Shown in pieces: positions 1 through 60,349 of a stretch of 64,000 bases of DNA (positions are counted from its first letter, which is position 1; each line of letters opens with the position of its first letter). Under the pieces are notes generated by a model. The model had not been told where the DNA came from and searched no databases. It worked only from the letters and a program-made list of their open reading frames with translations. Both the position numbers and the translations under genes were made by a program. The stretch comes from Bolinopsis microptera (taxonomy: Eukaryota > Ctenophora > Tentaculata > Lobata > Bolinopsidae): contig NC_087084.1 of the NCBI RefSeq assembly GCF_026151205.1, positions 13,842,235-13,906,234 on the forward strand. Direction: 5' to 3'.

Positions 1-2354
<2,354 letters not shown>

Positions 2355-22195: not shown

Positions 22196-23894
22196 TGGTA
22201 GATTATAGATTGTAGATTATAGATTATAGATTGTAGATTGTAGATTATAGATTATAGATTGTAGATTGTAGATTGTAGATTGTAGATTGTAGATTGTAGA
22301 TTGTAGATTGTAGATTATAGATTGTAGATTGTAGATTGTAGATTGTAGATTGTAGATTGTAGATAGTAGATTGTAGATTATAGATTATAGATTGTAGATT
22401 GTAGATTGTAGATTGTAGATTGTAGATTGTAGATTGTAGATTATAGATTATAGATTGTAGATTATAGATTATAGATTGTAGATTGTAGATTGTAGATTGT
22501 AGATTGTAGATTGTAGATTGTAGATTGTAGATTATAGATTATAGATTGTAGATTATAGATTATAGATTGTAGATTGTAGATTGTAGATTATAGATTGTAG
22601 ATTGTAGATTGTAGATTATAGATTATAGATTGTAGATTGTAGATTGTAGATTGTAGATTGTAGATTGTAGATTGTAGATTGTAGATTATAGATTGTAGAT
22701 TGTAGATTGTAGATTGTAGATTGTAGATTGTAGATAGTAGATTGTAGATTATAGATTATAGATTGTAGATTGTAGATTGTAGATTGTAGATTGTAGATTG
22801 TAGATTGTAGATTATAGATTATAGATTGTAGATTATAGATTATAGATTGTAGATTGTAGATTGTAGATTGTAGATTGTAGATTGTAGATTGTAGATTGTA
22901 GATTATAGATTATAGATTGTAGATTATAGATTATAGATTGTAGATTGTAGATTGTAGATTATAGATTGTAGATTGTAGATTGTAGATTGTATATTATAGA
23001 TTGTAGATTATAGATTATAGATTGTAGATTATAGATTGTAGATTGTAGATTGTAGATTGTATATTATAGATTGTAGATTATAGATTATAGATTGTAGATT
23101 GTAGATTGTAGATTGTAGATTGTAGATTGTAGATTGTAGATTGTAGATTGTAGATTGTATATTATAGATTGTAGATTATAGATTATAGATTGTAGATTAT
23201 AGATTGTAGATTGTAGATTGTAGATTATAGATTGTAGATTGTAGATTATAGATTGTAGATTGTAGATTGTAGATTGTAGATTGTAGATTGTAGATAGTAG
23301 ATTGTAGATTATAGATTGTAGATTATAGATTGTATATTATAGATTGTAGATTATAGATTATAGATTGTAGATTATAGATTGTAGATTGTAGATTGTAGAT
23401 TATAGATTATATATTGTAGATTATAGATTGTAGATAGTAGATAGTAGATAGTAGATTATAGATTGTAGATTGTAGATAGTAGATAGTAGATAGTTGATAG
23501 TAGATAGTAGATTATAGATTATATATTGTAGATTATAGATTGTAGATTGTAGATAGTAGATTATAGATTGTAGATTGTAGATTGTAGATTGTAGATTGTA
23601 GATTATAGATTATATATTGTAGATTATAGATTGTAGATAGTAGATAGTAGATAGTAGATTATAGATTGTAGATTGTAGATTGTAGATTATAGATTATATA
23701 TTGTAGATTATAGATTGTAGATAGTAGATAGTAGATAGTAGATTATAGATTGTAGATTGTAGATAGTAGATAGTAGATAGTTGATAGTAGATAGTAGATT
23801 ATAGATTATATATTGTAGATTATAGATTGCAGATTGTAGATAGTAGATTATAGATTGTAGATTATAGATTATAGATTGTAGATAGTAGATAGTA
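22196..23894. repeat. 7-bp TAGATTG array
   Basis: About 240 copies of TAGATTG with variants TAGATTA, TAGATAG and TATATTG. Blocks of variants repeat at larger scale. After the inserted transposon the array resumes for about 40 bp at 25044-25085. Confidence 0.96.
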
Positions 23895-25041
23895 GGGTAA
23901 AGCACATAATTTTGTCATTTTTTGGCAATTTTCAGACTGCCTGATATAAACCATGGGTTTTAACCTCGTCTGAAATTCCGATTTAGATGAAACCTCCACC
24001 ATGTTATAGTAGACAGTCTAGGCAAGTTCTATCACAAAAATGATCGAAATTGCTGGGGTTGAAGATGTTCAAAAAAATTATTTTGAAAAAATGACAAAAT
24101 TAGGTGACTTTACTTAATTTTGTCACCCCGAACCTAATTTTGTCACTTGAAGATTGTGCAAAAAGTAACCGTTTCTCGGTATTTTAGACTACCTGGATGC
24201 ATCATTCGAGCGCTTTTTTACCAACATTGACCTCAAAAATCCCAAAGATATGATGTTTTCATAGTTTTGTAGCTTGATGAAAAGATGACACTTTTTGGGT
24301 ATATAATCTTAGAAAATAGCCCCCAAATGCCCCTGAAACCACTGGTATCTTGAAAAACAATTGGTTCTAGGTCTAGGTTGAAATTTTCATGTCTGTAGAT
24401 AGATCACTTGCTTAGTAATTTCATCAATTATTTTTTTAGTCATTTTAGATTGAAAAAATCAGATTATCCACCTCGGCGAAAATATGCTATTATAAGTGTT
24501 ATGCTATTATAAGTGCCTTATACATATCCTATGGGCAAAAAAACTTCAGAATAGTTGTATAAGGCCATTTTCAACACAATCTGTGATTTACAAGAAATTT
24601 GAGAAAGGTCGATTTTTTTGACAAAATTAGGTACTTTTGGCAAAATCGAACCTAATTTTGTCACCCTCTGTAACTTAAACAATAATTGCGCTAGAGACTT
24701 GAAAATTTGTACGTATACTTCTGCTGTAGAAGATATTTGAAATATGCAATGGCATGAAGCTAGCTCAATTACTTTTGAAATAGCAATAAATCAAAATTTT
24801 GAAAATTCCTTAAGAAAACCTTAAGGATCTTATTTATTTTTCGGGTTAACAGTTTCGCCTTCATTTTTGACACAGATGCAAAAGAGCTAAAAACTTAAAC
24901 TTTGTAGGAGCAGTTTCAGCAAAGTCTAAGCTTTCTTTTTATACACAAACCTTTTCTTTCAAGCTGAAATTCCGAGCCGAGGCAGTTTTTCAGAGCAAAA
25001 TGACAAAATTAGGTACCCTGACAAAATTACGTGCCTTACCC
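23895..25041. mobile_element. 1147-bp DNA transposon with TA target duplication
   Basis: The left end GGGTAAAGCACATAATTTTG and the right end, read inverted as GGGTAAGGCACGTAATTTTG, form 23-bp terminal inverted repeats with two mismatches. Both are flanked by TA. The element sits inside the 7-bp array. The motif TAATTTTGTCA or its complement recurs about eight times, clustered near both ends and around 24095-24145 and 24620-24665. No transposase frame is present, so it is non-autonomous. The TA duplication suggests the Tc1/mariner superfamily. Confidence 0.85.
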
Positions 25042-27083: not shown

Positions 27084-30000
27084 GTTCTCTGATTTGTCTC
27101 ACTACATCGTCGTGAAACTTGTGAACTTCCTCCCAGTGGGGCAGGCTACGCACTCTCTCCAACCAGCCTACAAGAGAAGGTTATTAATTTAATTAATTAA
27201 TTAATTAATTAGATTTTTTTGATATGACTCCATTTAAAAGTTTCCCTCCTCCACTTTAAATTTATTTCTCGACGAAAAAATTAATAGAAAAAAAGGAAAG
27301 AAACATTGTGACAGCCAGCAGTTTAAAATCATCCACAAAAATGTTAAAACTTACTGATAACATTGGGCCACATTTTAAAATCAAAGTTGACCAGTTCGAG
27401 CACGACGACGATACTTGCTATTGTGAAATCAGCTGTTGTTCTTACTCCTAGCAGCCAACTCTGAGGAAATCAGTAATTAATTAGTAATTAATTAGTAAAT
27501 AGTAATTAATTAGTAATTAATTAGTAAATCAAGGAATAGATCGTCAGAGATTAGTATTTATCACTAACTTGTACATTAAAAAGTGACTATACATCTTTAA
27601 TGAGATATTAGAAATTACAATCTCTGAAAATTCATAATCGCTTTTTTTAATACATTAATCAAACAACAACAACTTAATAAACAAATTTACTACACCAATA
27701 CTAAATTCCAGTTAAATTATCATTAAAGTTAAACTCTCTTCAGATTTCAGAAGAACTTACCTTATTACTGTGTAGATAAGAAGAAGTTACCTTATTACTG
27801 TGTAGATAAGAAGACGTTGCCTTATTACTGTGTAGATAAGAAGAAGTTACCTTATTACTGTGTAGATAAGAAGAAGTTACCTTATTACTGTGTAGATAAG
27901 AAGAACTTACCTTATTACTGTGTAGATAAGAAGAAGTTACCTTATTACTGTGTAGATAAGAAGAAGTTACCTTATTACTGTGTAGATAAGAAGAAGTTAC
28001 CTTATTACTGTGTAAATAAGAAGAACTTACCTTATTACTGTGTAGATAAGAAGAAGTTACCGTATTACTGTGTAGATAAGAAGAACTTACCTTATTACTG
28101 TGTAGATAAGAAGAAGTTACCTTATTACTGTGTAGATAAGAAGAAGTTACCTTATTACTGTGTAGATAAGAAGAAGTTACCTTATTACTGTGTAGATAAG
28201 AAGAAGTTACCTTATTACTGTGTAGATAAGAAGAAGTTACCTTATTACTGTGTAGATAAGAAGAACTTACCTTATTACTGTGTAGATAAGAAGAACTTAC
28301 CTTATTACTGTGTAGATAAGAAGAAGTTACCTTATTACTGTGTAGATAAGAAGAAGTTACCTTATTACTGTGTAGATAAGAAGAACTTACCTTATTACTG
28401 TGTAGATAAGAAGAACTTACCTTATTACTGTGTAGATAAGAAGAACTTACCTTATTACTGTGTAGATAAGAAGAAGTTACCTTATTACTGTGTAGATAAG
28501 AAGAAGTTACCTTATTACTGTGTAGATAATAAGAAGTTACCTTATTACTGTGTAGATAAGAAGAACTTACCTTATTACTGTGTAGATAAGAAGAAGTTAC
28601 CTTATTACTGTGTAGATAAGAAGAACTTACCTTATTACTGTGTAGATAAGAAGAAGTTACCTTATTACTGTGTAGATAAGAAGAACTTACCTTATTACTG
28701 TGTAGATAAGAAGAAGTTACCTTATTACTGTATAGATAAGAAGAAGTTACCTTATTACTGTGTATATAAGAAGAAGTTACCTTATTACTGTGTAGATAAG
28801 AAGAAGTTACCTTATTACTGTGTAGATAAGAAGAACTTACCTTATTACTGTGTAGATAAGAAGAACTTACCTTATTACTGTGTAGATAAGAAGAAGTTAC
28901 CTTATTACTGTGTATATAAGAAGAAGTTACCTTATTACTGTGTAGATAAGAAGAACTTACCTTATTACTGTGTAGATAAGAAGAACTTACCTTATTACTG
29001 TGTAGATAAGAAGAAGTTACCTTATTACTGTGTAGATAAGAAGAAGTTACCTTATTACTGTGTAGATAATAAGAAGTTACCTTATTACTGTGTAGATAAG
29101 AAGAAGTTACCTTATTACTGTGTAGATAAGAAGAACTTACCTTATTACTGTGTAGATAAGAAGAAGTTACCTTATTACTGTGTAGATAAGAAGAAGTTAC
29201 CTTATTACTGTGTAGATAATAAGAAGTTACCTTATTACTGTGTAGATAAGAAGAACTTACCTTATTACTGTGTAGATAAGAAGAAGTTACCTTATTACTG
29301 TGTAGATAAGAAGAAGTTACCTTATTACTGTGTAGATAAGAAGAAGTTACCTTATTACTGTGTAGATAAGAAGAACTTACCTTATTACTGTGTAGATAAG
29401 AAGAACTTACCTTATTACTGTGTAGATAAGAAGAAGTTACCTTATTACTGTGTAGATAATAAGAAGTTACCTTATTACTGTGTAGATAAGAAGAAGTTAC
29501 CTTATTACTGTGTAGATAAGAAGAAGTTACCTTATTACTGTGTAGATAAGAAGAACTTACCTTATTACTGTGTAGATAAGAAGAAGTTACCTTATTACTG
29601 TGTAGATAATAAGAAGTTACCTTATTACTGTGTAGATAAGAAGAAGTTACCTTATTACTGTGTAGATAAGAAGAACTTACCTTATTACTGTGTAGATAAG
29701 AAGAAGTTACCTTATTACTGTGTAGATAAGAAGAAGTTACCTTATTACTGTGTAGATAATAAGAAGTTACCTTATTACTGTGTAGATAAGAAGAACTTAC
29801 CTTATTACTGTGTAGATAAGAAGAAGTTACCTTATTACTGTGTAGATAATAAGAAGTTACCTTATTACTGTGTAGATAAGAAGAAGTTACCTTATTACTG
29901 TGTAGATAAGAAGAAGTTACCTTATTACTGTGTAGATAAGAAGAAGTTACCTTATTACTGTGTAGATAATAAGAAGTTACCTTATTACTGTGTAGATAAG

Positions 30001-33000
30001 AAGAAGTTACCTTATTACTGTGTAGATAAGAAGAAGTTACCTTATTACTGTGTAGATAAGACTTTTCTATCGTGTCCAGATCTTCACATACCTGCAACAA
30101 ATACAATTTTCATCACACAGTTTAACACTGTTTAAAATTTACAGTAGATAATAATATGAATTATGACTTATTATAACGTGTTTTGTCACACAGTTTAACA
30201 CTGTTTAAAATTTACAGTAGATAATAATATGACTTATAACGTGTTTTGTTCCAATGTATATAATTGTATATTGTAAACCTGTGGGCTGTGCTAATCAAGG
30301 TGTCCTAGTACGTGTTTTGGTTACAAATAAATTAATAACTGCAAAAAATTAATAACTGCAAAAACAATACATAAGGTGTACATAATACATATTATAGTGT
30401 ACTGTTAACAGTAATTATGTATACATTATACAATGTTATGTTTTGTATAAACTCACAAACTAGTTAACTTGTACAATGTACAATAATAACCAAATTTACC
30501 GCGGAGCTTGCGAGAAAGGGAAAAGCTGCGGTTTGCGTTAAATTATTTGATTGTTTACATTTTAAAATGTGTTTTAAAGTCTTATTTGTGGAACGGAAAG
30601 GTCGCGTTAAATCTGAGTATATCATTTATAATCTCACACATCTTACACTAGTATTAAAATAATGCTGTGATATAACTTTGTTCAATTACTTCAAGGACTG
30701 TACAATCGTAGGTGTTTAATCCTAATCTATTTGACAGTATCAGGTCAGAGCAGCCCCCCCTCCTCTTCTTACACCCCTGGGTCAGGGCAGGGGCGCCCCC
30801 CCCCCCCTTTCCTACACCCCTGGGTCAGGGCAGGGGCGCTCCCCCCCCCCCTCTTCCTAAACCCCTGGGTCAGGATCTTAGAACACATTTGTTTAAGATA
30901 TCTCATTAGCAACTAGCACAGTGAACATTTAAATGGTGTAAATACCTTATAATTTGTAAAGAATGCTAGCCATCTTAGCACGTACTTTAAGAACATAAGA
31001 AGTAAAAAGTGGGTGGAAATGTTCAGTAAGAAGAAGGGGGCTAAACCAGGGGTTATATTACACCACAGTCTGAACCTAATAATTCTGTGTGTTGGTTCTT
31101 TACTGTAAAGGTTCGGTAAAAAGGAGAGGTGCTCTTACTGGGGAGGAAATAAGTTGTGTTACAATTCGTCCCCCCCTTCCCCCTACCCCTACCCCCGCAC
31201 CGCAACCCCTGCCCCCGCAACCCCCGCCCACCACCCCCGCCCCCGCAACCCACGCCCCCGCAACCGCCCCCTACCCTCGTCTCCCCCCGTCCACGGCACC
31301 CCGCCCCCTTCCCCCCTCATATTATAGTTTAACTTCTCCTCTCATTCTCCTCTCATTGGTTATGATTAATATTTAGTATTTAGCAGTGTGAGATGACTGA
31401 TGATAGTGAGATTAGTATTTATATAAACTTCATTATTTATTCACAAATCATAAAATATGATAATTCAATAAGCGGACACCTCTACAGTAATGTGAGAAGG
31501 GGAATAACTAAACAGCTGACCTCAACAATGTCCTCTATCCAGCTACTCAGAGAGAGAGGCAGTCCCACGTGACCTGCACGTGACCTGCACGTGACCTGCA
31601 CGTGACTACTATTCACGCACATTATCCTATTCTGTTATTACGGTCCTACAATCTACATTCTTAGTCCTTACATTAGCTTCGCAAACTCCGTTCTCTCTTA
31701 CGTAATTCTTATTGTGCTGATCTTCCAGTAGTTTGTTTCTCAGCAGACTCTGTTCGAACTGGATGTCTATTTTAGTTACTCACTTAACTGTTACAGCCAG
31801 GCATTATAATATTTCTTATTTTCTGTGATATTCGCCTGATTTTACCCTCCTCCTCCTCCTCCTCACTTTGTCTACATCTGAGACGAAAGTCAGGTAGGAA
31901 CGATACAGATTAAGGATCGATTGTGTGAGTTATAATATAAGAGGATTCAATATCTTATATCAGAGGTTTAATCTATTATAATAGCCAATTAGCTGTAAAT
32001 ATCAATTATCAATATAGTCTCTCGTAAAAAGCTCCCGTGAACATTGTATAAGTTGTGATAACATCAAATTCAGCTAATCTGATAAAAATCTTTTCAGAAT
32101 CATTTCAAACTCGTCACAAACTAATAAGATATTGGGATGGGGAAAAGAAAAAATAACAAGGGAAAGCAGAGAAAGAAAGGCAGAAAAAGGAAACAATTGG
32201 TTGCAAATGATAAACAAACAAATTGCGGTCGGTACATATAATACTTATATTCATATTATATACTATGTTATGCATGACATTTTGTAAGTCTATTATGATT
32301 TATGCTATAAAATCAAGCAGTTCTTATAGAATCAATACAATTGATAAATTTAGCTCAGGCCGTTCAGCCACTTTGTTACATTCTCCATTATCATTCTGGG
32401 GTCTTATAACTTACAATTTTGTTGTAAGTAAGATATTTTTTCAACTTTTACAGAGATAACTACGCTGCAAGACCAATCTCCGATTGCCCCCAAAGAGACT
32501 AATATTGATGCTCACAACGACAAAGAGGAAGCATCCAGCAGTACTTTTGATGAAAAAACAAATTTCGGTTGGTACATACTTATATCTATATTCATTATTC
32601 ATGACTTTTTGTAGTAAAACATTAACGAAGTCTATTATGATTTATGCTATAAAATCAAGCAGTTCTTATAGAATCAATACAATTGATAAATTTAGCTCAG
32701 GCCGTTCAGCCACTTTGTTACATTCTCCATTATCATTCTGGGGTCTTATAACTTACAATTTTGTTGTAAGTAAGATATTTTTTCAACTTTTACAGAGATA
32801 ACTACGCTGCAAGACCAATCTCCGATTGCCCCCAAAGAGACTAATATTGATGCTCACAACGACAAAGAGGAAGCATCCAGCAGTACTTTTGATGAAAAAA
32901 CAAATTTCGGTTGGTACATACTTATATCTATATTCATTATTCATGACTTTTTGTAGTAAAACATTAACGAAGTCTATTATGATTTATGCTATAAAATCAA

Positions 33001-36000
33001 GCAGTTCTTATAATAAAACAAATATTTATAAAACAAATATTTATTTTTACGGCACAATCAAACAATATCAATAATAAATAAATCAGGGGAGGTTTGAAGA
33101 GGTTTCAAGTGCCGAAGGCCACTGCTTATCTTTAGGATTTGAGAGTGACCTGTGCTTGAAACCCCCTCAACCATCCACTACGTCAATATACTTGTTATAT
33201 AAATTATATAGAAAAATATAACAATCTAAAATTACTTATTGGTTTAGTTAGGTGACATAGGAGAGCCCAGTTGAGTTTTAGTTTAGGTTTAAGTTTTAAG
33301 TCAAAGTTTAAAAGGTTAGCCATGTTTCATGGCAGAGAGAGATATCATGTGTGCAGAGCCGTACCGGATTTAGAATTTGAGATATAATATAAATTAGTTA
33401 CCATGTATTAGGGTCATCTCGATTTTGGAGGGAAAGCAAGTGCTTTTTAAGGTTAGATTTAATAATACCTGACGAGGCTGACAAGTCTGAATTCTTGGAA
33501 GAACCCGGGATTATTATCCCATCTACATTAGCATCACATATTTCGAATACATGGGGGCTGAGGTCATTCCAAATTTTCGTAGAGGTGTACAAAAAGTTCT
33601 GTTGGGAGATATCCAACCTCAGTAATGGGACAATCAGACGAAGTTTTTCATTTCTAGGACAGAACTTGAAAAGATCTTTAATCGACTGGGGGACATCAAA
33701 TTTAAGAATTTTGAATAGTTCCATAAATGTGTGGTACATGTGCAAATTCTCCAGGTTCATAATTTTCTGCTCAGTGAATAGCGGTTTAGTGTGTTCAAGA
33801 CAGTAGTTCTTGCTAGCCATATGTTCGTTATAAGTTCTTGAACGTGCACAGGTTAAATAGTATTCCTTATGATCAAAATTGGGAATGTTACCAAATAGCA
33901 GTCTTATACATCGTTTTTGAATTGCAAAAATTTTATTCAGCTTATGTTTAGGGATCCCACCCCAGCAACTTATACAATAGCTAAGATGTGACATAAAAAG
34001 AGCATTGTATAGTTTCAAATATTCAGATTTGGGAATGAATTTGCAAATTCTCTTAATCGATACAATACTGGAGTTCAGCTTTAAAGATAAATGATTAAGA
34101 TGTGGTTCCCAGCTTAGCTGTTCGTCTATTATCACCCCAAGAAACTTTGTACATTGAACCTTTTCTAGCTTTTTGCCATCTATTAAAATCGTTAGATTCC
34201 TGTTAAAGGGCCGTGTTCTGGCACAGGTCTGTGTTGCTCTTGACAAACCTGGCTGAAAATGCATGTAACAACTTTTCCCTGCATTTATATGTAACTTGTT
34301 AGACTCCATATAGTTACTGACCTGTTTCATTACATGATTAGCTTTTTCAAAAGCTTCCTGTGCTGAACTACCTATCACAAAAATATTTGTATCATCAGCA
34401 AACAGGACGAATTCAGCCAAGCTTGAGGAGCTCACAATATCATTTATATAAATCAGAAATAGTAGAGGTCCTAACACTGACCCCTGGGGTACACCATACT
34501 CAACTGAACACTTGTCCGATTTTTCAGTTTGAAAAGAAGTTACTTGGCTACGGTTTGTTAGATAGCTAGCAAGAGTTTTTAGTGCAATACCTCTTACTCC
34601 ATAGTGTTCAAGTTTATGCAGGAGTTTATCGTGCTCAATTGTGTCAAATGCTTTACTTAGATCAATAAATATTCCAATTACATGATTTTTCTGTTCAATC
34701 TCATTAAGTATTTTATTGACAGAATAGTTTACGGCATGATTTGTTGAGTGTTGTTTTCTAAAACCAAATTGTCGGTCATAAATCACGTTCATAGCACTGA
34801 GGTAATTATATAACCTATTATAAATTATTTTTTCAAGTATTTTTCCAAATATCGGTAATGTAGAAACAGGTCGATAGTTATCAAGGCATCGTGAGTCTCC
34901 TTTTTTATAAATTGGTGTAATAGAGCCCGTTTTAAGCTTGTTTGGAAAGACCCCATTGTCCAAGAACCAATTAAAGAATCTAGAGATATGACCAGACAGA
35001 TAATTTACACTCTTTTTTAAGACTTTAACAGAGATATCACTTGCCTTCCCATTTTCAAGGCTACCAATAATTTTACTTATCTCTTCCTCGTCACAGGGGC
35101 TGAGAAAAAAAGAGTTCACTATTCTTTCTCTGCCCTTGAGGTATTGCTTAAACTTCGTTTTATTGAAATTGCCATCAGTTACCGTACGAGATGGTACAGA
35201 AGATTGAACTTTTGAATTAAGAGTACGAGCAATAGACGAGAAGTAGATGTTAAATCCGTTAGCAATCTCACGGCGTTCAGTTACAATTCTACCATCAATT
35301 AAGAATGATGCTTTTATATCTTTTTTAGATTTACCCCTGAGTTCGTTAATCAATTCCCAGGTTTTTTTAATATTTCCTTTAGCAAGTTCAAATTTTTTCC
35401 CATCTAGTGGGCTTTTTTCGCAGATTTTATAGCTTTGTTTAGGATAGAACGATACTCCTTATACTTAAGATATAAAGTTTCCTCACCTAATGGGTTGATT
35501 TTGGTACACGAAGCCTTCCATCGCTTGTAGTGAAAGCCTTTAGTAAACACAGATTTAATTAACGCAGAAGTGATCCATGGATTCATCAATCTATTGCGTT
35601 TTGATTGAAAACCAGCAGTAGAGTCCACTTTGAAATTCAGTTCGATTTTTTCATGGACAGTTTCGACAAATTTTTCAAAACCTTCCTCATCATACGAAAA
35701 GTTCGATTGGTAGATATCCCTTCCGATATCATTAAGGAAGCTTTCTATATTAGACTCACAGTAATCATACTTAGGTTTAAGTTTGGCATCATTTGGACTC
35801 TCTTTAGTATTACACGATATGAAACAGAAGATGGGGTTATGATGGGAAATCTTGGATTCAAGAATTCCAGATCCTAAGACACGCTCAGTAGAGTTCACTA
35901 AAATATTATCAATTAAGCTTTCGTTGCAACCCGGCTTGGCATGGGTGGCAATCGATATCAAAGGGATTAAATTGTTACTGTAGATAGTTTGTTCAAATTC

Positions 36001-39000
36001 GGCTATGTTTCGTCCCTGGGCCAAAAGATCAACATTGAAGTCACCTGTCAAGGCTACATTATTAGACGGTAGGAATTTCATCAACACATCAAGCTCAGCA
36101 AGTGCATCTAGAATATCACCACTAGGGGGCCTGTAAACAACACCAGCAATCTGTGGAACCTCTGTGTTAGTGATCTCAACAAAAAGTGTTTCAAGATTGT
36201 CAGAGCATTTACATAACTTTTCGATTCGGCTGTATTGGTACTTATTGTCAATATATACACCAAGGCCACTACCTTTCTTTTTCCCATCAGTTTTGGAGTT
36301 GTACTCACTGCTGTAACCATCAATTTTGTATAGATCTTTATTTTCCTCATCAATGTTTGTTTCAGCTAGCGCAATAACTGCAAATTTCTCATCATATTGA
36401 CTCATATCAGTAATAAAGCTGTCAAAGTTAGATGCGTTCCCATCAATGTTGTTAAACACAATAGATATAAACGGCTTGTTATGGTTAAGTATGTTTTTTG
36501 ACAGCCGGTTGAAATTTGTCATGTTATAAGACCTACAGTCTTTTAGAATGTTTGAAATAGTCTCCATATCTTCGTCTCTTTCTACAGTGTTGGGATCATA
36601 TTTGTCATAAATAATTGAGTTGAAAGGATTGTACCTTTGGGATTTGAAGGCGAAACATTGACTGCAGTGCCACATTTGTTTAACATGGTCAAATTTAAAG
36701 CTCTGTTCAGAACATTTGGCATGATATATTGTATCGCAACACTCACATATTATGACTTTATGATGGCTTAGTACATTGCTATCACAACCTGGACATCTCT
36801 CTCTTGTAATATTAAAGTTTATTGAGGTCATATCGGTAAGATATCACCCCTACTACCCCTACTTAGGGCACTCCTATAGTCACCATTTCCACCTTTAAAT
36901 CTTTCCGTGGACTGACTTCCACCACGTTGTACAATACATCGTTTTATATTCATGCAAAATATTTTCAGGCCTTCTCTTCCGAGATGTACAACATCATTGA
37001 CCAATGGTGTTCCATCACGTGAGAATCTACCATACTTAGAAGGCATGCATCCGTTAACAGAACCTAGTACAGAGTTATCTATAATAAACATGTTTTTCCT
37101 ATTATAAACCATGTCAACAATTAAACTGTTTAACTCCCCTATACGTGAGTTAACAAACTGTGATTTAGTGGGCAAGAGTAGACTAATATGAACTTTACTA
37201 TTTGGATAAAATTGCTGAATTTCACTACATTTCTTCTTAAGCTTAGCAATAAGTGTTCTAGTAGATGGTCTGTTGTTATTGTCCCGAATATCATTGATTC
37301 CCGTGTGTATAACAATGTTCCGATAAGGGCCTATGTCTTTCGGAGAAGGAATATCGTCAATTTTAGCAGCCCACATTCGCTTACCAGGAACCCATTTTCC
37401 GAGAGTTCCAACATCTTTACCAAATTGAATATATTTAGTGTTTGAGTCCCCAATTAAAACTGTGCTATTTTTGTAGTAAGGCGCAATATGCCTAAAGGTA
37501 GAATCAATACAATTGATAAATTTAGCTCAGGCCGTTCAGCCACTTTGTTACATTCTCCATTATCATTCTGGGGTCTTATAACTTACAATTTTTTTGTAAG
37601 TAAGATATTTTTTCAACTTTTACAGAGATAACTACGCTGCAAGACCAATCTCCGATTGCCCCCAAAGAGACTAATATTCACATCGACGAAGAGGAAGCAT
37701 CCAGCAGTACTTTTGATGAAAAAACAAATTTCGGTTGGTACATACTTATATCTATATTCATTATTCATGACTTTTTGTAGTAAAACATTAACGAAGTCTA
37801 TTATGATTTATGCTATAAAATCAAGCAGTTCTTATAGAATCAATACAATTGATAAATTTAGCTCAGGCCGTTCAGCCACTTTGTTACATTCTCCATTATC
37901 ATTCTGGGGTCTTATAACTTACAATTTTGTTGTAAGTAAGATATTTTTTCAACTTTTACAGAGATAACTACGCTGCAATACCAATCTCCGATTGCCCCCA
38001 AAGAGACTAATATTGATGCTCACAACGACAAAGAGGAAGCATCCAGCAGTACTTTTGATGAAAAAACAAATTTCGGTTGGTACATACTTATATCTATATT
38101 CATTATTCATGACTTTTTGTAGTAAAATATTAACGAAGTCTATTATGATTTATGTTATAAAATCTAGCAATTCTTATAGAATTGATACTATTGATACATT
38201 TAGCCAATGTACTAGACTCTCCATCATAATTGTAGGGTCCTACAACTTACAATGTTTGATTTTATTCAACTTTTACAGAGATGAATACGCTGGAAGAGTA
38301 TAGAAACAAAGGCAAAGAAATCTGTAAAAAGTATTGCGAGTTTAAAAACCAATCTCCGATTATGTTACCGCCTGCCCCCAAACAGACCTACATTGATGCT
38401 TACATCGACGAAGAGGGAGCACCTAGCATGATCAGTAAGATTAAATCTGACGATGAGAAATCAAGACGAGACTATGAGGCTGAGGTGGTGACATATCGGG
38501 CTTTGGAGAGATTGCCAGAGGAAAGGTGTGTGGTTCTTCATAGCTTCAAGTACACCGATCGTCAGTACCGAATGTGTGATAAAAATACAGAACCTGAATT
38601 TGATGAAGCAGAATGTGACTTTGTTGTTATCGGAAGTAACTATGTCGCTATAATAGAAGTGAAGAATGTCGAGGATCAGGAAGATGGCAAAGTTACAAAG
38701 TCGAAGAAAAAGCGATTAAAAAAGGGGTTGAAAAAGCTTTTAAAAATATCATGCGATCAACTTGAAAGGACAAAATCATTGATAAATGGTCTTTTACAGC
38801 AAGTTTTCGCTGGAATGGAGGCAGATCAATGCTCAATAATATGCCTGTCCGCGTTTCCTAGCACAAGTCGTGTTCGATTTAAGAACATGGATGAACAGAC
38901 CAAAAAGCAGATATTGTGCAAAGAGGACTTTATAGATTTCTCAAGCTGGTGGAAACAATATGTGCTAGGTTCGATATCTAGCTTTGTTCAAACTGAAACT

Positions 39001-42000
39001 TTTCTCGCCAAACACCAGGAAATGAAGCAAGTATTGGTAGCTATCTACTGTACTGATAAAAACCTATGTGATGAACTGAAGTGTTGCTTGGGAAAAGCTA
39101 TAATGGACATTGACGACGAGTTGAAGAAAGGAAATATTACATTTCTCAGCAAAAACCGTCTACCAAATCCTAATGTGAGAAAAGCAACTGATATAAAGTC
39201 TGCAAATATTGACAGTGGCATTAACATTTTCAAAGACATGCTCGGTATAGAATACTTGACTGTGGAACAACATGATGCTTTCAACAAAGATCAGAATCTG
39301 CTGGCAATTAATGGACCAGCAGGTTCAGGGAAAACTATCATCTTGTTGGCTATGATCATAAAAGTGATCAAATCAAATGTGGATAGCAGAGCTGTGTTGT
39401 TCATTTTCTCAGAGGATAACATTTCATTTAAACGTTATCGAGATGCTTTAGATAAAGCTGAAATCAGTAACGAAGTGATAGCCACGGACAGTCCAAAGTT
39501 CATACTCACATTACAGAAGATATTAGAAAGTAATAGCAGGGTGGTAATAGTTAGGATCACATGTTTGTTATCTTTCACACATGTGTATAGAACAGTGACT
39601 AAACTGATGGAAAGGAACACACACCTATTTATTGATGACTGGCAGGGTATGGTGGGTCCGTTAAAACGAACAATGTTTACAGAGCTCGAGATACAGCAGA
39701 TTGTCAGAGCACCAACTAACTGTGTGATCGCTTGTGATTTAACTCAGTCATCCTACTATAACACAGGATCATCTAAAAAAAAACGATTTTTCCCATCCTT
39801 AATAAACTTGCCCCCTGAAAACATTGTAACTCTATCTCTGAACTTAAGAAATACTTCTGACATTATTGACATTCTATCTAAGATGAGAGAGCACATAATT
39901 CTACAAGTTCCTCAAGTAAAAAGAGACTTAGCTATTCCTATGATAAAACACGGACATTTTATTCACGGACCACAGATTGTAGTGCATGTTATTGAGAAGA
40001 CACTTGAGAAGGATTTAAGTGTGGTTATTGGTATCTTGAATGTAGAGCTAGATAAATTATGTAAAACAGACAATATTAAAATAGGTATATTATATAATAC
40101 AAGATACAAATATTACAAAATAATTCAAAAGGTAATAGAAGAACGATGTAGTGTATTTGATAATAATAAAATAGAGTGGTGTAATGTTAAAAGTTGTTAT
40201 TCAGTAGAGTACCCAGCAGTTATTGTGTTACTCGATTTTACTTATTATTTTAATGACCTACCTTCTCTTTACCTGCAGATTTCAAGAGCAAGAGTATATT
40301 GTGTTGTTATAGTATATAATTCAGATGATAGCATCTTCTTTTCAGGATTTCAACAATTAAAGATACGCCGCCGTTACTTGTCATTTAAACGATTAAATGA
40401 TATATTGGTTGAACTTGGAGATTTAATCAGAATCATACGGCATGCTTGATAACACAGAGTTTATCTGTGATAAGAATATTTGTGTTGTTCATGTGAATGA
40501 CACAAACACATTTTATTGAATGTTACATTGAAAATACTAATATGAGATAAGATTTGTAAAGTAACAATTTATACTGCCAATTTTATAATACACAGTGTTG
40601 AATTTAGTAGTATCAACAATATTAGTGAAACTACACAGCTGTTCTGAAAATAAATTTAAAATGAAGAAATTGAACTATTATACAAGTTCAACATGTAGCG
40701 TGATTATCAGAGTATGTACAGTATGATAGGATCCAAATACTTTACAAAGCTTATCAAATAGTTCATGATCACTGCACTCTGCACTCTGCACCTATCACCA
40801 CACTTAGATTAAATACGATATATTAATATAATATAAATATAAAACTGAAGACAGTCTAAAATAACTTACCTTCTTTATGCCAGTTTCAATAAGCTTGTTA
40901 TTACTTGTACTGTCTTCTAACCACCACGTGTCATGACGTCACACCACGTGTCATGACGTCACACCACGTGTCATGACGTCACACTTAAATAACTAACCTT
41001 CTTTATGCCAGTTTCAATAAGCTTGTTATTACTTGTACTGTCTTCTAACCACCACGTGTCATGACGTCACACCACGTGTCATGACGTCACACCACGTGTC
41101 ATGACGTCACACCACGTGTCATGACGTCACACTAAAATAACTAACCTTCTTTATGCCAGTTTCAATGAGCTTGTTATTACTTGTACTGTCTTCTAACCAC
41201 CACGTGTCATGACGTCACACCACGTGTCATGACGTCACACTAAAATAACTTACCTTCTTTATGCCAGTTTCAATAAGCTTGTTATTACTTGTACTGTCTT
41301 CTAACCACCACGTGTCATGACGTCACACCACGTGTCATGAAGTCACACTAAAATAACTAACCTTCTTTATGCCAGTTTCAATAAGCTTGTTATTACTTGT
41401 ACTGTCTTCTAACCACCACGTGTCATGACGTCACACCACGTGTCATGACGTCACAACACGTGTCATGACGTCACACTAAAATAACTTACCTTCTTTATGC
41501 CAGTTTCAATAAGCTTGTTATTACTTGTACTGTCTTCTAACCACCACGTGTCATGACGTCACACCACGTGTCATGACGTCACACTAAAATAACTTACCTT
41601 CTTTATGCCAGTTTCAATAAGCGTGTTATTACTTGTACTGTCTTCTAACGCGAACTCGCTGTATATTTGTGGATACACATAGCTAAAACCAATGTTCCTG
41701 AAATTATTTATTTCAATTTCAAACCATGGCTATTATTTATAACTTTATTAGAATAAAAGTTGATCAATAGTTTATTAATAAATTAAAATAAAAGTTAAAA
41801 ATCACTTTTAAGACTAGTGGCTACATATTATTTAAAACTTTACATGTCCCAAATATCGAGTGTTTTCGGAATTATGTCTATAACAGTGTTATAGTTATAT
41901 AATTCCCCCACTGAAACACGATGTTGAATATTATCTCAGTTTCAAGAGCAGAGCCTAAATAACGTTAGGAATTCCAGGAATCTCACCAATGTAACTGCTC

Positions 42001-43431: not shown

Positions 43432-45700
43432 ATAACTCAAGACCCCTTGTCAATACCAGATGTTCTACATAACTCAAGATCCCTTGTCAATACCAGATGT
43501 TCTACATAACTCAAGACCCCTTGTCAATACCAGATGTTCTACATAACTCAAGACCCCTTGTCAATACCAGATGTTCTACATAACTCAAGACCCCTTGTCT
43601 ATACCAGATGTTCTACATAACTCAAGACCCCTTGTCTATACCAGATGTTCTACATAACTCAAGATCCCTTGTCTATACCAGATGTTCTACATAACTCAAG
43701 ATCCCTTGTCTATACCAGATGTTCTACATAACTCAAGACCCCTTGTCTATACCAGATGTTCTACATAACTCAAGATCCCTTGTCTATACCAGATGTTCTA
43801 CATAACTCAAGACCCCTTGTCAATACCAGATGTTCTACATAACTCAAGACCCCTTGTCAATACCAGATGTTCTACATAACTCAAGACCCCTTGTCTATAC
43901 CAGATGTTCTACATAACTCAAGACCCCTTGTCAATACCAGATGTTCTACATAACTCAAGACCCCTTGTCAATACCAGATGTTCTACATAACTCAAGACCC
44001 CTTGTCTATACCAGATGTTCTACATAACTCAAGACCCCTTGTCAATACCAGATGTTCTACATAACTCAAGACCCCTTGTCAATACCAGATGTTCTACATA
44101 ACTCAAGACCCCTTGTCAATACCAGATGTTCTACATAACTCAAGACCCCTTGTCAATACCAGATGTTCTACATAACTCAAGACCCCTTGTCAATACCAGA
44201 TGTTCTACATAACTCAAGACCCCTTGTCAATACCAGATGTTCTACATAACTCAAGACCCCTTGTCAATACCAGATGTTCTACATAACTCAAGACCCCTTG
44301 TCTATACCAGATGTTCTACATAACTCAAGACCCCTTGTCAATACCAGATGTTCTACATAACTCAAGACCCCTTGTCAATACCAGATGTTCTACATAACTC
44401 AAGAGTCAAGACCCCTTGTCTATACCAGATGTTCTACATTACTCAAGACCCCTTGTCTATACCAGATGTTCTACATAACTCAAGACCCCTTGTCAATACC
44501 AGATGTTCTACATAACTCAAGACCCCTTGTCTATACCAGATGTTCTACATAACTCAAGACCCCTTGTCAATACCAGATGTTCTACATAACTCAAGACCCC
44601 TTGTCTATACCAGATGTTCTACATAACTCAAGACCCCTTGTCTATACCAGATGTTCTACATAACTCAAGACCCCTTGTCTATACCAGATGTTCTACATTA
44701 CTCAAGACCCCTTGTCTATACCAGATGTTCTACATAACTCAAGACCCCTTGTCAATACCAGATGTTCTACATAACTCAAGACCCCTTGTCTATACCAGAT
44801 GTTCTACATAACTCAAGACCCCTTGTCAATACCAGATGTTCTACATTTCTCAAGACCCCTTGTCAATACCAGATGTTCTACATAACTCAAGACCCCTTGT
44901 CAATACCAGATGTTCTATATAACTCAAGACCCCTTGTCTATACCAGATGTTCTACATTTCTCAAGACCCCTTGTCAATACCAGATGTTCTACATAACTCA
45001 AGACCCCTTGTCAATACCAGATGTTCTACATAACTCAAGACCCCTTGTCAATACCAGATGTTCTACATAACTCAAGACCCCTTGTCAATACCAGATGTTC
45101 TACATAACTCAAGACCCCTTGTCAATACCAGATGTTCTACATAACTCAAGACCCCTTGTCAATACCAGATGTTCTACATAACTCAAGACCCCTTGTCAAT
45201 ACCAGATGTTCTACATAACTCAAAACACCTTGTCTATACCAGATGTTCTACATAACTCAAAACCCCTTGTCAATACCAGATGTTCTACATAACTCAAGAC
45301 CCCTTGTCTATACCAGATGTTCTACATAACTCAAGACCCCTTGTCAATACCAGATGTTCTACATAACTCAAGACCCCTTGTCAATACCAGATGTTCTACA
45401 TAACTCAAGACCCCTTGTCAATACCAGATGTTCTACATAACTCAAGACCCTTTGTCTATACCAATGTTCTACATAACTCAAGACACCTTGTCAATACCAG
45501 ATGTTCTACATAACTCAAGACCCCTTGTCTATACCAGATGTTCTACATAACTCAAGACCCCTTGTTAATACCAGATGTTCTACATAACTCAAGACCCTTT
45601 GTCAATACCAGATGTTCTACATAACTCAAGACCCCTTGTCAATACCAGATGTTCTACATAACTCAAGACCCCTTGTCAATACCAGATGTTCTACATTTCG
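43432..45700. repeat. 37-bp minisatellite built from the CEP290-like stop region
   Basis: About 61 copies of ATAACTCAAGACCCCTTGTC followed by A/TATACCAGATGTTCTAC. On the minus strand each unit repeats the last codons and stop of the adjoining coding exon (TGT AGA ACA TCT GGT ATT, then the GS-stop). The array thus begins inside the terminal exon and fills the 3' side. One unit near 44401 carries an extra AGAGTCA, and a few have TTTCTC or TTACTC. Confidence 0.96.
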
Positions 45701-47692: not shown

Positions 47693-48148
47693 AACATTTC
47701 TATAATATTTAGTAGTTCACCAATAAATCGTTTACGATATAAACTTAAAAGAAAATATCTGCGTTTCAACCAGTGCGTTTCTAGTTATGAATAAATCGAT
47801 CTGTAAGACAGGTTCACAAGCTATGATATAATAAATTTGTAGGAACCCCTCAATATTCACAAGGAAGTTGCAAGTTTTAGTGTTTAGTGTAGGTTGCCTT
47901 CTGTTTTGCGGGGTTGGTTGTCGTCATTAAAATCGTCTTTTTGTCTCTCTGATTTCGCTTCTGAGCAGATTATTTCCACATACATTTGTATCAAATTCAG
48001 TTTTATATCATCATAACTTATAATACTCAAATCCTTAAATATCACTATATTGAAGAAGAAAAAATTTCCCGGCATACTCTCTTTTGAAAGGTAGTCTATC
48101 TGTCGTACCCATGTAGTATATTAATACCTCAATACATATTCCAAAAAC

Positions 48149-48952
48149 ATGATTAACCTCCCAACTAGCAGCAGGATGGGTTACAGCATTCCTCGCATTC
48201 CTGGAGCACAAATAAAAGAAAGAAAGCTCGAGCAGTACTGGCGACGTGTCTTCACTGTAAGTTCCATATTCTCGACAGTCGCGGGATGTCTCCTTATCGG
48301 TGCCTCGATAACCCTCTACACGGATGGTAAATATGAGCAGTATTTTAACTCCACCCAACACCCCCTGGTGTACCTCCTATTCTTCGTGTCCTGCTTCGGA
48401 GCTCTGGCTGGTTTCCTTGCTGTTTGCATTATCACAATCCACAGCTACAAGCTACTCTACGCAATGAACATCATGTTGGCTCTAGTGACAACAGCCAAGA
48501 TAGCAGGAGTGTGTTTCGCGCTGGTATACAGAGTTAAAACACTGCACGGAGTCACCACCCAACTAGAGGAACACATGGCAAACTACTCTAACAACATGCA
48601 GGTGCAGTGGGACCTGGACACTCTCCAGTCACGTGACCAATGCTGTGGGGTGACCACGCCCCTCGACTGGGCTAACAACACCCTGGTTCAAGGCTCCTGG
48701 AACACCTCTCATCTGCCGGACTCCTGCTGCAGGGTGGTTGTACCAGAGTGTGGGGTTAACAAGGCTAATGTAGCAGTGCTGGAGGGTTTAACCCTGGCGG
48801 TACACAAGCAGGGTTGTTATCAGGTGCTGAGACAGTGGTTTGATTTCAGGATGAAGGTGATTGGGGTGATAGCGGGGGTCACTTCGTTAGGGGAGGCAGT
48901 GATGGTTGCTATATCTACTAGGTGGATACGGTTCATAGAACTTTACTGGTGA
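48149..48952 (+). CDS. tetraspanin, intronless
   Basis: A 267-aa membrane organiser. TM1 is at about 36-57, TM2 at 73-95, TM3 at 102-127 and TM4 at 236-256. The large loop has the family signature CCG at 165-167, plus CC at 193-194, C201 and C223, giving six cysteines, and several N-glycosylation sites (NYS, NNT, NTS). The length is typical. The initiator could be residue 1 or Met10 (MGYSIPRIPG); no RBS-like or splice evidence decides. It is single-exon and runs opposite to its neighbours on both sides. AATAAA lies at about 49240. Confidence 0.9.
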   Translation: MINLPTSSRMGYSIPRIPGAQIKERKLEQYWRRVFTVSSIFSTVAGCLLIGASITLYTDGKYEQYFNSTQHPLVYLLFFVSCFGALAGFLAVCIITIHSYKLLYAMNIMLALVTTAKIAGVCFALVYRVKTLHGVTTQLEEHMANYSNNMQVQWDLDTLQSRDQCCGVTTPLDWANNTLVQGSWNTSHLPDSCCRVVVPECGVNKANVAVLEGLTLAVHKQGCYQVLRQWFDFRMKVIGVIAGVTSLGEAVMVAISTRWIRFIELYW

Positions 48953-54712: not shown

Positions 54713-56590
54713 TGAAACTAATAAATCAATGAAACTAATAAATCAATGTTTTAGCTCATTTTACAAAGTCAAATATTTAAAACAATTAAAATTGTATAGT
54801 GCTCAATTTGTAAATGACTAGTTGATCTTTGCTATTGGAAGTTTGTCAAGGACTGGCAGCTAGCGGGGCAAGGAATGCACGGGCTTAGGGGCTTTTGTGC
54901 ACACCAGAACACTAGCTCGGTAGATTTTTTGGAAACTAGAAGGACTGAAAACTAAAATTGTTTTTGATGGAGGCTGAGGCATGTTTTTGAGAGGGACGGT
55001 ATAATAGCTTGTGGTAACAACTGGCCTTTACTTTAATAGGATGAAGTTTTAGTTTTAGGACATGAAGAATGCATTAAGAAGATTTGCTCTTTGTTTACAA
55101 GGCAGAATATAAGCAATGTTGGTTATAATATGTATCAATATCTAGATCTTCGTTTATCAATTTTCACTAAATGGGTTTAAAATTTTAATAGGGAGGGAAA
55201 TTCATCAACTTATTAAGTACCTATCAAAAATAAATCTTATATCAATGTAATATATTAAAAATCATAATCCTAAGTCTAATAATAAATCTGTTAAAAACAC
55301 TTTCTCACTACACTGCGCTCACACACGTTAGTAAGACAAAGGAAAATGCACACCCAGCTAATTTTCAATTTCAAGATAATCATTTTGGATGTGTGGACCC
55401 TAGGGTAGACTTAATGTCAAAATTTAGATTAGAGCATTCGAAATCTTTGTTTGTCCAATCAAGATCAGCATGGTTATGCTGGTTGACGAGCAGTGATTGC
55501 TTCATCCTAGACTTCAGGCAGGCCACACTAAGACAGTAGTCACGTATACCAAGCTTAGGCACAATTACGTTCCAAATACGAGTCGTTCTGCTATTGAAGT
55601 TGTCAGGGGGGTCTGCTTGGCTTAGTATAAGGGTGGGTTTCCTACTTGAGCAGGTGAAATTTTCATGGAGGGAAATCGGAGCACGGAATTTCATGATTTT
55701 ATAGAGCTCAAGGAAACAATGGTAAGTGTACAGGTTTTGGACGGCAAGTATTCTGTGTTCCTTGAACAAAGGTTTCGTGTGCTCTTTCAAGAAAAATTTT
55801 TTGTTCAGATTTTGGTTGCCAAACGGTCGAGCACGAGCACAGGTCTTAAATTTATCTAGGTATGCCTCCCTGTCGCCAAACAGTACCCTGAGACAATATT
55901 TTTGTGCTTTGAATACAGAACTTATACGAGTTTTGGCTGCCCCACCCCAAACCGTGATACAATAGGAGAGGTGTGATTCAAATAGAGTGTAATACAACTG
56001 GCGGTGTAAGAAATCTGGGAGGGAGCAGCGTAGGCGGCAGAGAGTTGATGTTGCATGGCTGAGAGAACGCCTAAGTGATTTTATATGTTCTTCCCAGGTT
56101 AGCTTTTCATCGATGACGACTCCCAGAAACTTAGCAGATGCAACTTGTTTTATTGGAAAGTTATCAATGGTTAGAGTATATTCAGAATTATTGTCAGTCT
56201 GGGAGGACGATGCTGGTTTAAAGTGAATGAAACAGCATTTAGACAAGTTGACATGGAGTTTGTTTGCTCGCATGTAGGAATATAAACTAGCTAAAAGAGA
56301 ATTACCACGCATATATGCCTCCTTTTTAGATTTCCCAGTCACAAATATATTGGTGTCATCAGCGAAGGTGACAAATGATCCCAAACTGGAGCTGTTGGCG
56401 ATATCATTAATATATAGGAGAAATAAGAGAGGTCCAAGAATCGAACCCTGAGAGACTCCAAACTGTATTTTCAAGGCGTCAGATTTCTCACCAACAACTT
56501 CAGTATATTGTGATCTATTTGTTAAGTAACTTTTTATAAGATCATTTGCCACCCCACGTATCCCATAGCCCTGTAATTTGACAAGTAATG
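54713..56590 (-). mobile_element. 5'-truncated LINE inserted in LINE ORF1
   Basis: On the minus strand the element begins inside the reverse transcriptase (LLVKLQGYGIRGVANDLIKS) and ends with a tandem tail of TTGATTTATTAGTTTCA units at 54711-54745. The host ORF1 resumes exactly after 56590 with ALPTKLAELNRKVVCFN. Confidence 0.85.
55380..56588 (-). pseudogene. LINE reverse transcriptase, C-terminal two-thirds
   Basis: Open for about 400 codons. It shows GVSQGSILGPLLFLLYINDI (motif B; the usual GVPQ is GVSQ), SFVTFADDTNIFV (motif C with the catalytic DD) and KFLGVVIDEKLTWEEHI (motif E-like). The N-terminal fingers and motif A are absent because of 5' truncation. Confidence 0.88.
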
Positions 56591-56984
56591 TCCAGCCCTG
56601 CCTACAAAGCTTGCTGAACTGAATAGAAAAGTTGTTTGCTTTAACCGCCTTATTCTGACAGAGCTGATCCCTTCAAATTTTGGTGTGACTTACGTCGATG
56701 GGTTCGGTGGGTTCTGTGATGATGCTGGGCTTCTTAGCCAACAGTTCTCCAGAAACATCGGCCGAGACCAGCGACCAGATCATCTCCACCTTAACTGGAG
56801 GGGTACAGCTAAACTAGGCACTTTGATTCGTAACACAGTGCTTCTTAGAATGAATGGAGGAGTTGATAGAAGGAAAAGGAGAACAGACGAGGTTGATGGA
56901 CGCTCATATCGGAACGTGTTGAGTGGGACGGGTTCTACTACTGCTGCTGAGTCTCGACACCAGGATGGTTACCAGCCATTCTGA
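56591..56984 (+). pseudogene. LINE ORF1, C-terminal part
   Basis: Continues the interrupted frame: ALPTKLAELNRKVVCFN, then FGVTYVDGFGGFCDDAG and DHLHLNWRGTAKLGTLI, whose D-x-x-H-L matches the SGNH catalytic end block. The stop is at 56982-56984. Confidence 0.75.
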
Positions 56985-56989
56985 CTCCC

Positions 56990-59900: not shown

Positions 59901-60349
59901 AGGCGTACTTAGAAAAGTTTAGAACTTGTGCTAGAACACGAAGTAAAGACAAGCAAAAATTGGGAAGCGACTTCTATGAAAAACAGCACACAAAACCGCT
60001 ATTTAAGAAAAATGGTTTACTAACCATACACAGTTTGTTCAAACACACATGTTTATTGGAAATGTTCAAAATCAATAAATTAGAATCCCCAGTCCCACTC
60101 CTAAATCTATTTCACAGATCATCAAGACGTGCTGATCGATTCATCACTCCAACCCCATCCACCTCCTTCATATATCAATCGACAAAAATGTGGAACGATT
60201 GTAGAAACACTGCTAGCAATATCAACTTCTCTACATCAACGAACCTTGTAAAATCCACAATAAAAAAGGAGTTACTCGGCATGCAGTCCAGGTACGACGA
60301 TATAGATTGGTGTGAACTGAACTTCGATTCCAACGAACTGAAATTCTAA
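56990..60349 (+). CDS. LINE ORF2, intact: PHD, endonuclease, reverse transcriptase
   Basis: The frame is uninterrupted. The first ATG is at 57074, but the PHD-like finger begins earlier (CLVCAKF...CCECDCPMHHKC...FYCPKC), so the real start is upstream, near the ORF1 stop, without an ATG; reinitiation or frameshift is likely. Endonuclease: FQNIDGNKSNFD, IALAETNEGP, YLAGDFNIDL, SHHSPIF. A Cys cluster (CQCPICCSKR) sits between the domains. Reverse transcriptase: FIDLSKAFDTI, PQGSCLGPLLFIIYINDL, FADDTNIFV, KFLGVIIDDQLKW. From the ATG the product is 1091 aa. Confidence 0.92.
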   Translation: MIKEVCLVCAKFINVGQFIVECCECDCPMHHKCYTKSINNDTLSDDFYCPKCVHLAVIRYNPFRLACTNLSDIESSELDDTIIKVDQILNNCVSYNVKEFNKALDNQMNEFSSLLFQNIDGNKSNFDTFAIESHRLTKKFSIIALAETNEGPESSSLYQLTGYNSFYQNTIPDKKKGTGVALYVCDTLSARVNGNVSHITEHLETLFVAVSSTTSPVTVGVMYRPPSGNVNVALSELSDILDSLPKCSYLAGDFNIDLHDKNSTIVQRYEEILLSKGFFPLISLATHEKPGCKASCIDNIITNDIESIVASGILTDRISHHSPIFQIFDRNLDSSRIDLKYKQYYDYNKPNVKAFLQTLEHDLNNNVIDNFTTFHDIFKDCIDRTCKLETPKCSKRTALNNPWITPDLVGKISYQHELYDKWVKVRKVKCKFGEIENKGGTCQCPICCSKRDKYKKYSDCRRKVKKDRRNAQSKFYGGKFAELHGNSKKTWELINQIRGKRKRQTKPLFTINNEKITNRRVIANEFNKYFVSLASNLNEAYNEIGELVINGIPSIYDYLPKSNTTSIYMHDCTIDEVCKIISELKNGKSSDIPIHVVKASSRIIAPLLSVLYNECLKEGIFPDDLKIGRISSIYKKENEELLENYRPVSTLAVFGKLFEKIIYSRLYSFFQSQNMIYENQYGFRKNYSTSHALNFSVNYIESCLNKKQHVLGIFIDLSKAFDTISADKLLSKLDNYGIRGNANKLIASYLSNRYQYVSVLGEESDKLPVLFGVPQGSCLGPLLFIIYINDLYRATELGKFILFADDTNIFVADECKIKLYERANQILKLVQLYMKCNLLHINIKKCCYIHFKPTNRKSKVEHNEEEHVLTLNNVVIKQVKKVKFLGVIIDDQLKWDAHIRSLNTKLKCESGKICRIRHIIPEKLYKELSYTLFESHLRFGISVWGGLSNNRLEPIFITQKKCVRILFGNREAYLEKFRTCARTRSKDKQKLGSDFYEKQHTKPLFKKNGLLTIHSLFKHTCLLEMFKINKLESPVPLLNLFHRSSRRADRFITPTPSTSFIYQSTKMWNDCRNTASNINFSTSTNLVKSTIKKELLGMQSRYDDIDWCELNFDSNELKF

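What the first reader, a model, noticed from the sequence alone, without database searches (positions are those of the whole stretch)
32137..40449. NERD nuclease-SF1 helicase gene with reiterated N-terminal exons
The large exon encodes a NERD nuclease domain with an intact D...ExK site and a full set of UvrD-like helicase motifs, an architecture best known in bacterial genome-defence and repair genes. Upstream, a lysine/arginine-rich first exon and four phase 1-1 exons lead into it in frame; those exons are shortened copies of the start of the large exon, within an exact 342-bp tandem repeat. A nuclear nuclease-helicase with an expandable N-terminal repeat region in an animal would be new to me. 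It may be horizontally acquired, a defence gene, or part of a mobile element.
Basis: partly seen in the sequence, partly recalled or inferred. Interest (0 to 1): 0.85.

Follow-up and report, generated by a model that had tools for sequence, protein, structure and literature searches.

The report
Comb-jelly nuclease-helicase gene with copied exons
In a comb jelly, a gene for a protein that looks like a nucleic-acid-cutting and unwinding enzyme of a bacterial-defence type belongs to a family of about a hundred copies, and in this copy a small new exon seems to have been born from the fusion of two neighbouring genes and then repeated four times.

Summary
A K/R-rich exon 1 (32137-32227), four phase 1-1 mini-exons and a large exon (38279-40449) read through in frame. 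The large exon carries a NERD nuclease domain above Pfam's cut-off with D...ExK intact and an SF1 helicase fold. The genome fits the ctenophore Bolinopsis microptera. RefSeq models of paralogs use the same exon 1-exon 2 splice without mini-exons, so the repeats were added in this gene. Intron types point to fusion of two tandem paralogs, then unequal crossing-over; a young LINE split the array. The family has at least 105 loci here, is homologous over its length to bacterial NERD-SF1 proteins, and includes ankyrin and TPR fusions, and TIR fusions in unnamed relatives. Helicase domain 1 may evolve under diversifying selection (uncorrected). Best reading: an expanded intracellular nucleic-acid-defence family; function is inferred. 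The mini-exons show no sign of constraint, their splicing is unseen, and they may be neutral.

The parts
32137..32227 (+). exon 1, MGKRKNNKGKQRKKGRKRKQLVANDKQTNC, ends in phase 1, donor G|GTCGGT
   Evidence: same donor in paralogs L041-L043; RefSeq protein P0002 begins with the product of that splice
32286..33012 (+). 342-bp tandem array upstream of the LINE, 2.1 copies
32454..32567 (+). mini-exon 1 (114 nt, phase 1-1)
32796..32909 (+). mini-exon 2 (114 nt, phase 1-1)
33013..37499 (-). LINE inserted inside a repeat unit (reverse transcriptase frame 33398-35458; endonuclease-like frame 35404-36843 and GDSL-like frame 36828-37526, both below Pfam cut-offs, the last running into the flank); the first two frames are out of register with each other
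   Evidence: genome copies; borders read
37626..37733 (+). mini-exon 3 (108 nt, one in-frame 6-nt gap against the others, phase 1-1)
37962..38075 (+). mini-exon 4 (114 nt, phase 1-1)
38279..40449 (+). large exon (exon 2); the ATG at 38281 follows the junction codon
38470..38796 (+). NERD nuclease domain (residues 64-172); D113, E126, K128
39202..40446 (+). SF1 helicase core (residues 308-722); Walker A at 39313-39336, DD of motif II at 39634-39639, SRAR at 40282-40293

Best explanation
The locus is one member of a ctenophore-expanded family of NERD-SF1 nuclease-helicases. SHOWN by sequence: gene anatomy, intact nuclease and ATPase motifs, at least 105 related loci in the genome (not all intact), whole-length homology to bacterial-type NERD-SF1 proteins, and paralogs with the same two-exon structure but no mini-exons. 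INFERRED: (1) the protein works inside the cell on foreign or aberrant nucleic acid. The SF1 motor moves along DNA or RNA using ATP, and the NERD domain, a PD-(D/E)XK-type nuclease, cuts it; accessory ankyrin, TPR or TIR modules in other members supply sensing or signalling. The basic exon 1 would aid nuclear entry or nucleic-acid binding. (2) The mini-exons arose when two tandem paralogs fused: the head of the upstream paralog's exon 2 joined the tail of the downstream paralog's exon 1 at a short GA-rich stretch, making a symmetric in-frame exon between two homologous introns. Unequal crossing-over between those introns then amplified it to four copies, and a LINE inserted. My separate estimates: two-exon gene with in-frame mini-exons 0.9; fusion plus unequal crossing-over 0.7; nucleic-acid defence role 0.5; mini-exons matter to function 0.2.
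Against: No expression, splicing or biochemical data. No entry equal to the window protein was listed in the protein search (best hit 71%), so I saw no public gene model for it. It departs from its relatives: nine residues of a His/Cys-rich stretch in NERD are missing (alignment), overall dN/dS against the close paralogs is about 1 (1.12 and 0.98), and NERD dN/dS is 0.71 and 0.65 in window comparisons against 0.37 between the two paralogs, which could mean relaxed constraint. The dN/dS excess is uncorrected over 20 region-by-pair tests (one search had run the same regions): Fisher p 0.016 and 0.008 fail a Bonferroni limit of 0.0025, L041 against L042 gives 1.46 (p 0.248), and against C13:13.70 Mb the same region gives 0.56. 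TIR fusion was seen only in unnamed proteins; in this genome the TIR part of P0048 matches a different frame on C1. Motif II is DD.
Confidence: 0.55

Rival explanations
1. The mini-exons are neutral tandem duplication products of a repeat-prone genome. They are skipped or only sporadically spliced in, and the window copy is under relaxed constraint or on its way to decay.
For: About 24% of the window is tandem repeat, 21% in arrays of 200 bp or more. Another family member on C8 has a 78-bp tandem repeat (61.3 copies in the 10-kb locus, cut by its end) that runs through its coding frame and leaves it open. Mini-exon versus exon-2 head pN/pS 0.70-0.88. Overall dN/dS about 1 against close paralogs. 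Unusual donor GTTGGT, though exon 1 has the similar GTCGGT.
Against: All four copies keep an open phase 1-1 frame with the same acceptor as the large exon, and the one gap among them is 6 nt; but the copies are too young and too alike for this to weigh much.
Confidence: 0.5
2. The family does DNA repair, genome maintenance or silencing of the animal's own transposons rather than defence against infection.
For: SF1 helicases such as UvrD serve repair (recalled); the basic exon 1 suggests the nucleus; the genome carries young LINEs.
Against: At least 105 loci, clustering, Ank/TPR/TIR fusions and a fast-changing helicase domain are unlike conserved repair genes.
Confidence: 0.25
3. The gene is part of a mobile element that carries it.
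For: High copy number; a LINE lies inside the gene.
Against: The LINE is antisense and in an intron, and 39 other places match it at 97-99%; close paralogs share exon 1, intron and exon 2, so these spread by DNA duplication with introns, not by retroposition. No search for terminal repeats was made.
Confidence: 0.03
4. The exact repeat is an assembly artefact.
For: Two units are identical over 342 bp.
Against: The units after the LINE differ (98% and 86%), the hybrid introns form an ordered series, and a LINE copy sits within.
Confidence: 0.05

Closest known systems
Bacterial NERD-SF1 (NERD+UvrD) proteins: six rows of A5 (P0102-P0107, two of them named, both Enterobacter); PADLOC model C3a187 'NERD+UvrD'
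   Same: Same domain order; profile alignment over 534 columns, 99.8%; NERD D...ExK and SF1 motifs
   Different: DE in motif II and shorter, 550-615 aa; the C3a187 model itself hits only at 14.8 bits over 25 residues
Schlafen proteins (SLFN5, SLFN11, SLFN14)
   Different: No Schlafen RNase-core hit in Pfam; SLFN-g3 helicase model below its cut-off; the middle domain is described as a mixed alpha/beta linker (PMC12215978, passages)
GajB of Gabija
   Same: Best PADLOC hit, UvrD-like helicase of a defence system (23.7 bits)
   Different: GajB has no NERD domain (recalled); best stretch covers about 40 residues around Walker A
PD-(D/E)XK nucleases (Can2, Cdn1, McrC)
   Different: Different partner domains (recalled); Foldseek E-values not significant (best 0.013)

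Membership tests
NERD domain (PF08378) | score above Pfam gathering cut-off | tested here: met
   32.1 against 22.1 bits
NERD domain (PF08378) | PD-(D/E)XK-type catalytic residues D...ExK | tested here: met
   D113, E126, K128 present; D and E invariant, K at 90% or more in 30 rows
NERD domain (PF08378) | nuclease activity | not testable with these tools
   no biochemistry
UvrD/REP helicases (PF00580) | score above Pfam gathering cut-off | tested here: not met
   window protein 18.7 against 23 bits; relatives do better: 23 of 30 rows match at E up to 0.01, best 9.6e-8. Filed as SF1 fold, not as UvrD family
UvrD/REP helicases (PF00580) | DE in motif II (recalled) | tested here: not met
   DD in all 30 rows of A1
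SF1 helicase fold | two RecA-like domains superposing on SF1 structures | tested here: met
   [not shown]
bacterial-type NERD-SF1 proteins | whole-length homology with both domains in this order | tested here: met
   hhalign 99.8%, E 7e-29, 534 columns
Schlafen | N-terminal Schlafen RNase core | tested here: not met
   no such Pfam family among the 19 hits at E up to 1
Schlafen | SLFN group 3 helicase model (PF09848) above cut-off | tested here: not met
   14.6 against 24 bits
Schlafen | middle domain fold before the helicase | tested here: inconclusive
   [not shown]
Gabija GajB | partner GajA next door (recalled) | not tested
   no search for it was made

The most novel reading that the evidence does not exclude
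Ctenophores run an unreported arm of cell-autonomous immunity built on a bacterial-type NERD-SF1 nuclease-helicase that was taken in once, expanded to about a hundred genes, fused to ankyrin, TPR and TIR modules, and diversified in helicase domain 1. Its domain pair is the ancestral form of the middle-domain-plus-helicase part of Schlafens, whose middle domain is then a dead NERD nuclease. Within it, exon birth by paralog fusion and unequal crossing-over makes length variants of the N-terminus.
Probability: 0.15. Interest if true: 0.88.

Novelty: new variant of a known kind. Interest (0 to 1): 0.62.

Why it matters
Ctenophores are early-branching animals whose innate immunity is poorly known; a published survey of ctenophore immune domains followed TIR2, NACHT, SRCR and CTLD genes, and its main text has no occurrence of NERD (PMC11797021, passages seen). 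A family of at least 105 loci of a bacterial-defence architecture in one such genome would be a large candidate repertoire that I found in no paper searched. The locus also appears to preserve, in order, the steps by which a symmetric exon may be born and multiplied: paralog fusion, hybrid introns from crossing-over, LINE insertion.
Full report
WHERE. The window is C13:13842235-13906234 of a 264,652,675-base genome in 232 contigs. C13 is 16,350,194 bases long, the contig length that the protein database gives for RefSeq Bolinopsis microptera proteins P0002 and P0006; C5 and C6 lengths likewise match those of P0017 and P0016. A published table gives 265 Mb and 13 chromosomes for that species (PMC11797021, passage seen; it lists 346 scaffolds, here 232 contigs). 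I take the genome to be B. microptera, a ctenophore; the handle itself is unnamed.

THE GENE. Exon 1 (32137-32227) encodes MGKRKNNKGKQRKKGRKRKQLVANDKQTNC and ends in phase 1. Four mini-exons of 114, 114, 108 and 114 nt follow, all phase 1-1, and then the large exon 38279-40449. Introns are 226, 228, 4716, 228 and 203 nt. Joining 0 to 4 mini-exons (in order) keeps the frame; the full product is open to the stop that ends at 40449. A mini-exon encodes (E)ITTLQDQSPIAPKETNIDAHNDKEEASSSTFDEKTNF, a shortened version of the start of the large exon, EMNTLEEYRNKGKEICKKYCEFKNQSPIMLPPAPKQTYIDAYIDEEGAPS. In the structure models, residues 34-55 of the NERD-only model and 43-54 of the full model have pLDDT under 50, so much of the repeated peptide corresponds to a disordered stretch ahead of the nuclease domain.

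PARALOGS SETTLE EXON 1. Three close paralogs (L041 on C13 at 13.98 Mb; L042 and L043, an inverted pair on C5 at 8.5 Mb) have an exon 1 of 73 nt ending in the same donor, one intron of 211-217 nt and a like acceptor. RefSeq protein P0002 starts MGKGKHKKKQKGDQSGTDREKTTCEMNTLEEY, the product of exactly that splice, and P0006 reads QEIGTLEQY with Ile in place of the Met. So these members start translation in exon 1, and the two-exon form without mini-exons is the older state of this close group. A DNA search with one 342-bp unit found the array only in the window; at the three close paralogs it found one intron copy (unit 99-309), and the exon-2 head separately.

HOW THE MINI-EXONS AROSE (inferred). 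Each mini-exon is the head of an exon 2 joined to the tail of an exon 1 (...TTTGATGAAAAAACAAATTTCG|GTTGGTACATACTTATATC, compare paralog ...GATAGAGAAAAAACAACTTGCG|GTCGGTACATACTTATATC). The intron after exon 1 is one type throughout. The intron after mini-exon 4 is the paralog-like type throughout. The introns after mini-exons 1 and 3 are paralog-like in the 5' half and exon-1-intron-like in the 3' half; the LINE-split intron after mini-exon 2 was not in that alignment but reads the same way. The simplest history is fusion of two tandem paralogs inside exon 2 of the first and exon 1 of the second, then unequal crossing-over within the shared middle of the two introns. The two upstream units are identical at 342 of 342 positions, so amplification is recent. 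A LINE on the minus strand sits inside one unit; 40 places (of 656 candidates, 40 scored), this one included, match a 1-kb piece of it at 97-100%, so it too is young.

FAMILY. With the window protein as query, 75 matches were listed from 62 scored of 289 candidates. PF08378 gave 91 matches, all over the cut-off, from 135 candidates; 2 of 14 control genomes rang, both bacterial, the others not named. Merged with the places to 111 loci result, depending on the gap allowed, one gene in two pieces counting twice; so at least 105. Some contain stops. It is a lower bound because only best candidates were scored and three further searches did not complete. 24 of 91 NERD loci lie within 50 kb of another, against a mean of 3.1 and a maximum of 12 in 1000 random placements (three chromosome lengths there were not from outputs). 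Profile comparison with six bacterial-type NERD-SF1 proteins, two of them named, gives 99.8% probability over 534 columns. In a 34-row tree the 22 ctenophore-labelled rows are one side of a branch (93/99; one group in 94% of bootstrap trees; not starred), apart from nine bacterial-labelled rows and P0116-P0118; most rows were labelled by me. Every eukaryotic hit that carried a source name was Bolinopsis or Mnemiopsis.

FUSIONS. P0048 and P0049 end in a TIR_2 domain (44.9 and 39.9 bits, cut-off 28) and P0038 and P0039 in ankyrin repeats. This genome itself has a NERD-SF1-ankyrin frame of 1042 aa on C7, and RefSeq P0114 is a family member by profile with N-terminal TPR repeats; only the TPR models reach E 0.001 in it. 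The TIR part of P0048 has its match here in another frame on C1, so the TIR fusion is seen only in unnamed proteins.

SELECTION. Window against L041 and L042: whole frame dN/dS 1.12 and 0.98; NERD region 0.71 and 0.65; helicase domain 1 (301-520) 2.00 and 2.37, with 84.6 and 79.2 nonsynonymous to 12.4 and 9.8 synonymous changes, Fisher p 0.016 and 0.008, bootstrap P(dN<=dS) 0.003 and 0.000; L041 against L042 1.46 (p 0.248); window against the more distant L044 0.56. Twenty tests were made there and none corrected. In sliding windows the excess lies at about residues 361-520. It fits diversifying selection in the close group, or relaxed constraint in part. The mini-exon compared with exon-2 heads over 24 codons gives pN/pS 0.83, 0.88 and 0.70: no sign of constraint on the repeated peptide.

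VERDICT. The gene is one of a large ctenophore family of bacterial-type nuclease-helicases, undescribed as far as my searches reach, whose most likely role is nucleic-acid defence, by analogy: a NERD-type nuclease is proposed as a backup effector in bacterial BREX PglW (PMC12839542, passages seen), and Schlafens, whose C-terminal domain resembles SF1 helicases (PMC12215978, passages seen), are described as antiviral (PMC8875196, search listing). The reiterated exons are a neat case of exon birth, but nothing shows that they are used.

Noticed in passing
L055:3901-9252 (C8, about 1.39 Mb): A family member has a 78-bp tandem repeat (61.3 copies listed, 99% matches, cut by the end of the locus) running through its coding frame; the open frame is 1783 aa and still ends in a helicase with its motifs. 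An independent coding repeat in the same family.
   Followed up: partly
[not shown]
   Followed up: partly
L056:295-3819: A family member with, by eye, two NERD-like regions in a row; the first lacks the E-x-K residues.
   Followed up: no
L060:42-3170 and 3636-4700: NERD-SF1 followed by ankyrin repeats in one frame, with more ankyrin repeats in a second frame downstream.
   Followed up: partly
window 38570-38620: The window protein lacks nine residues of a His/Cys-rich stretch (such as SHDRRKCDQCKG) that its close paralogs have inside NERD (alignment); possibly a lost metal knuckle.
   Followed up: no
window 55380-56672 (-) and 56951-60349 (+): Two further LINE-like open frames; the second is a single 1132-aa frame with a reverse transcriptase and a sub-cut-off endonuclease match; the first was recognised by eye.
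   Followed up: no
window 8593-9489 (-) and 48125-48952 (+): A SOUL heme-binding protein frame and a tetraspanin frame, ordinary neighbours.
   Followed up: no
window 1-2352, 22198-23895, 27749-30061, 43432-45696: Large minisatellite and microsatellite arrays; about 24% of the window is tandem repeat.
   Followed up: partly
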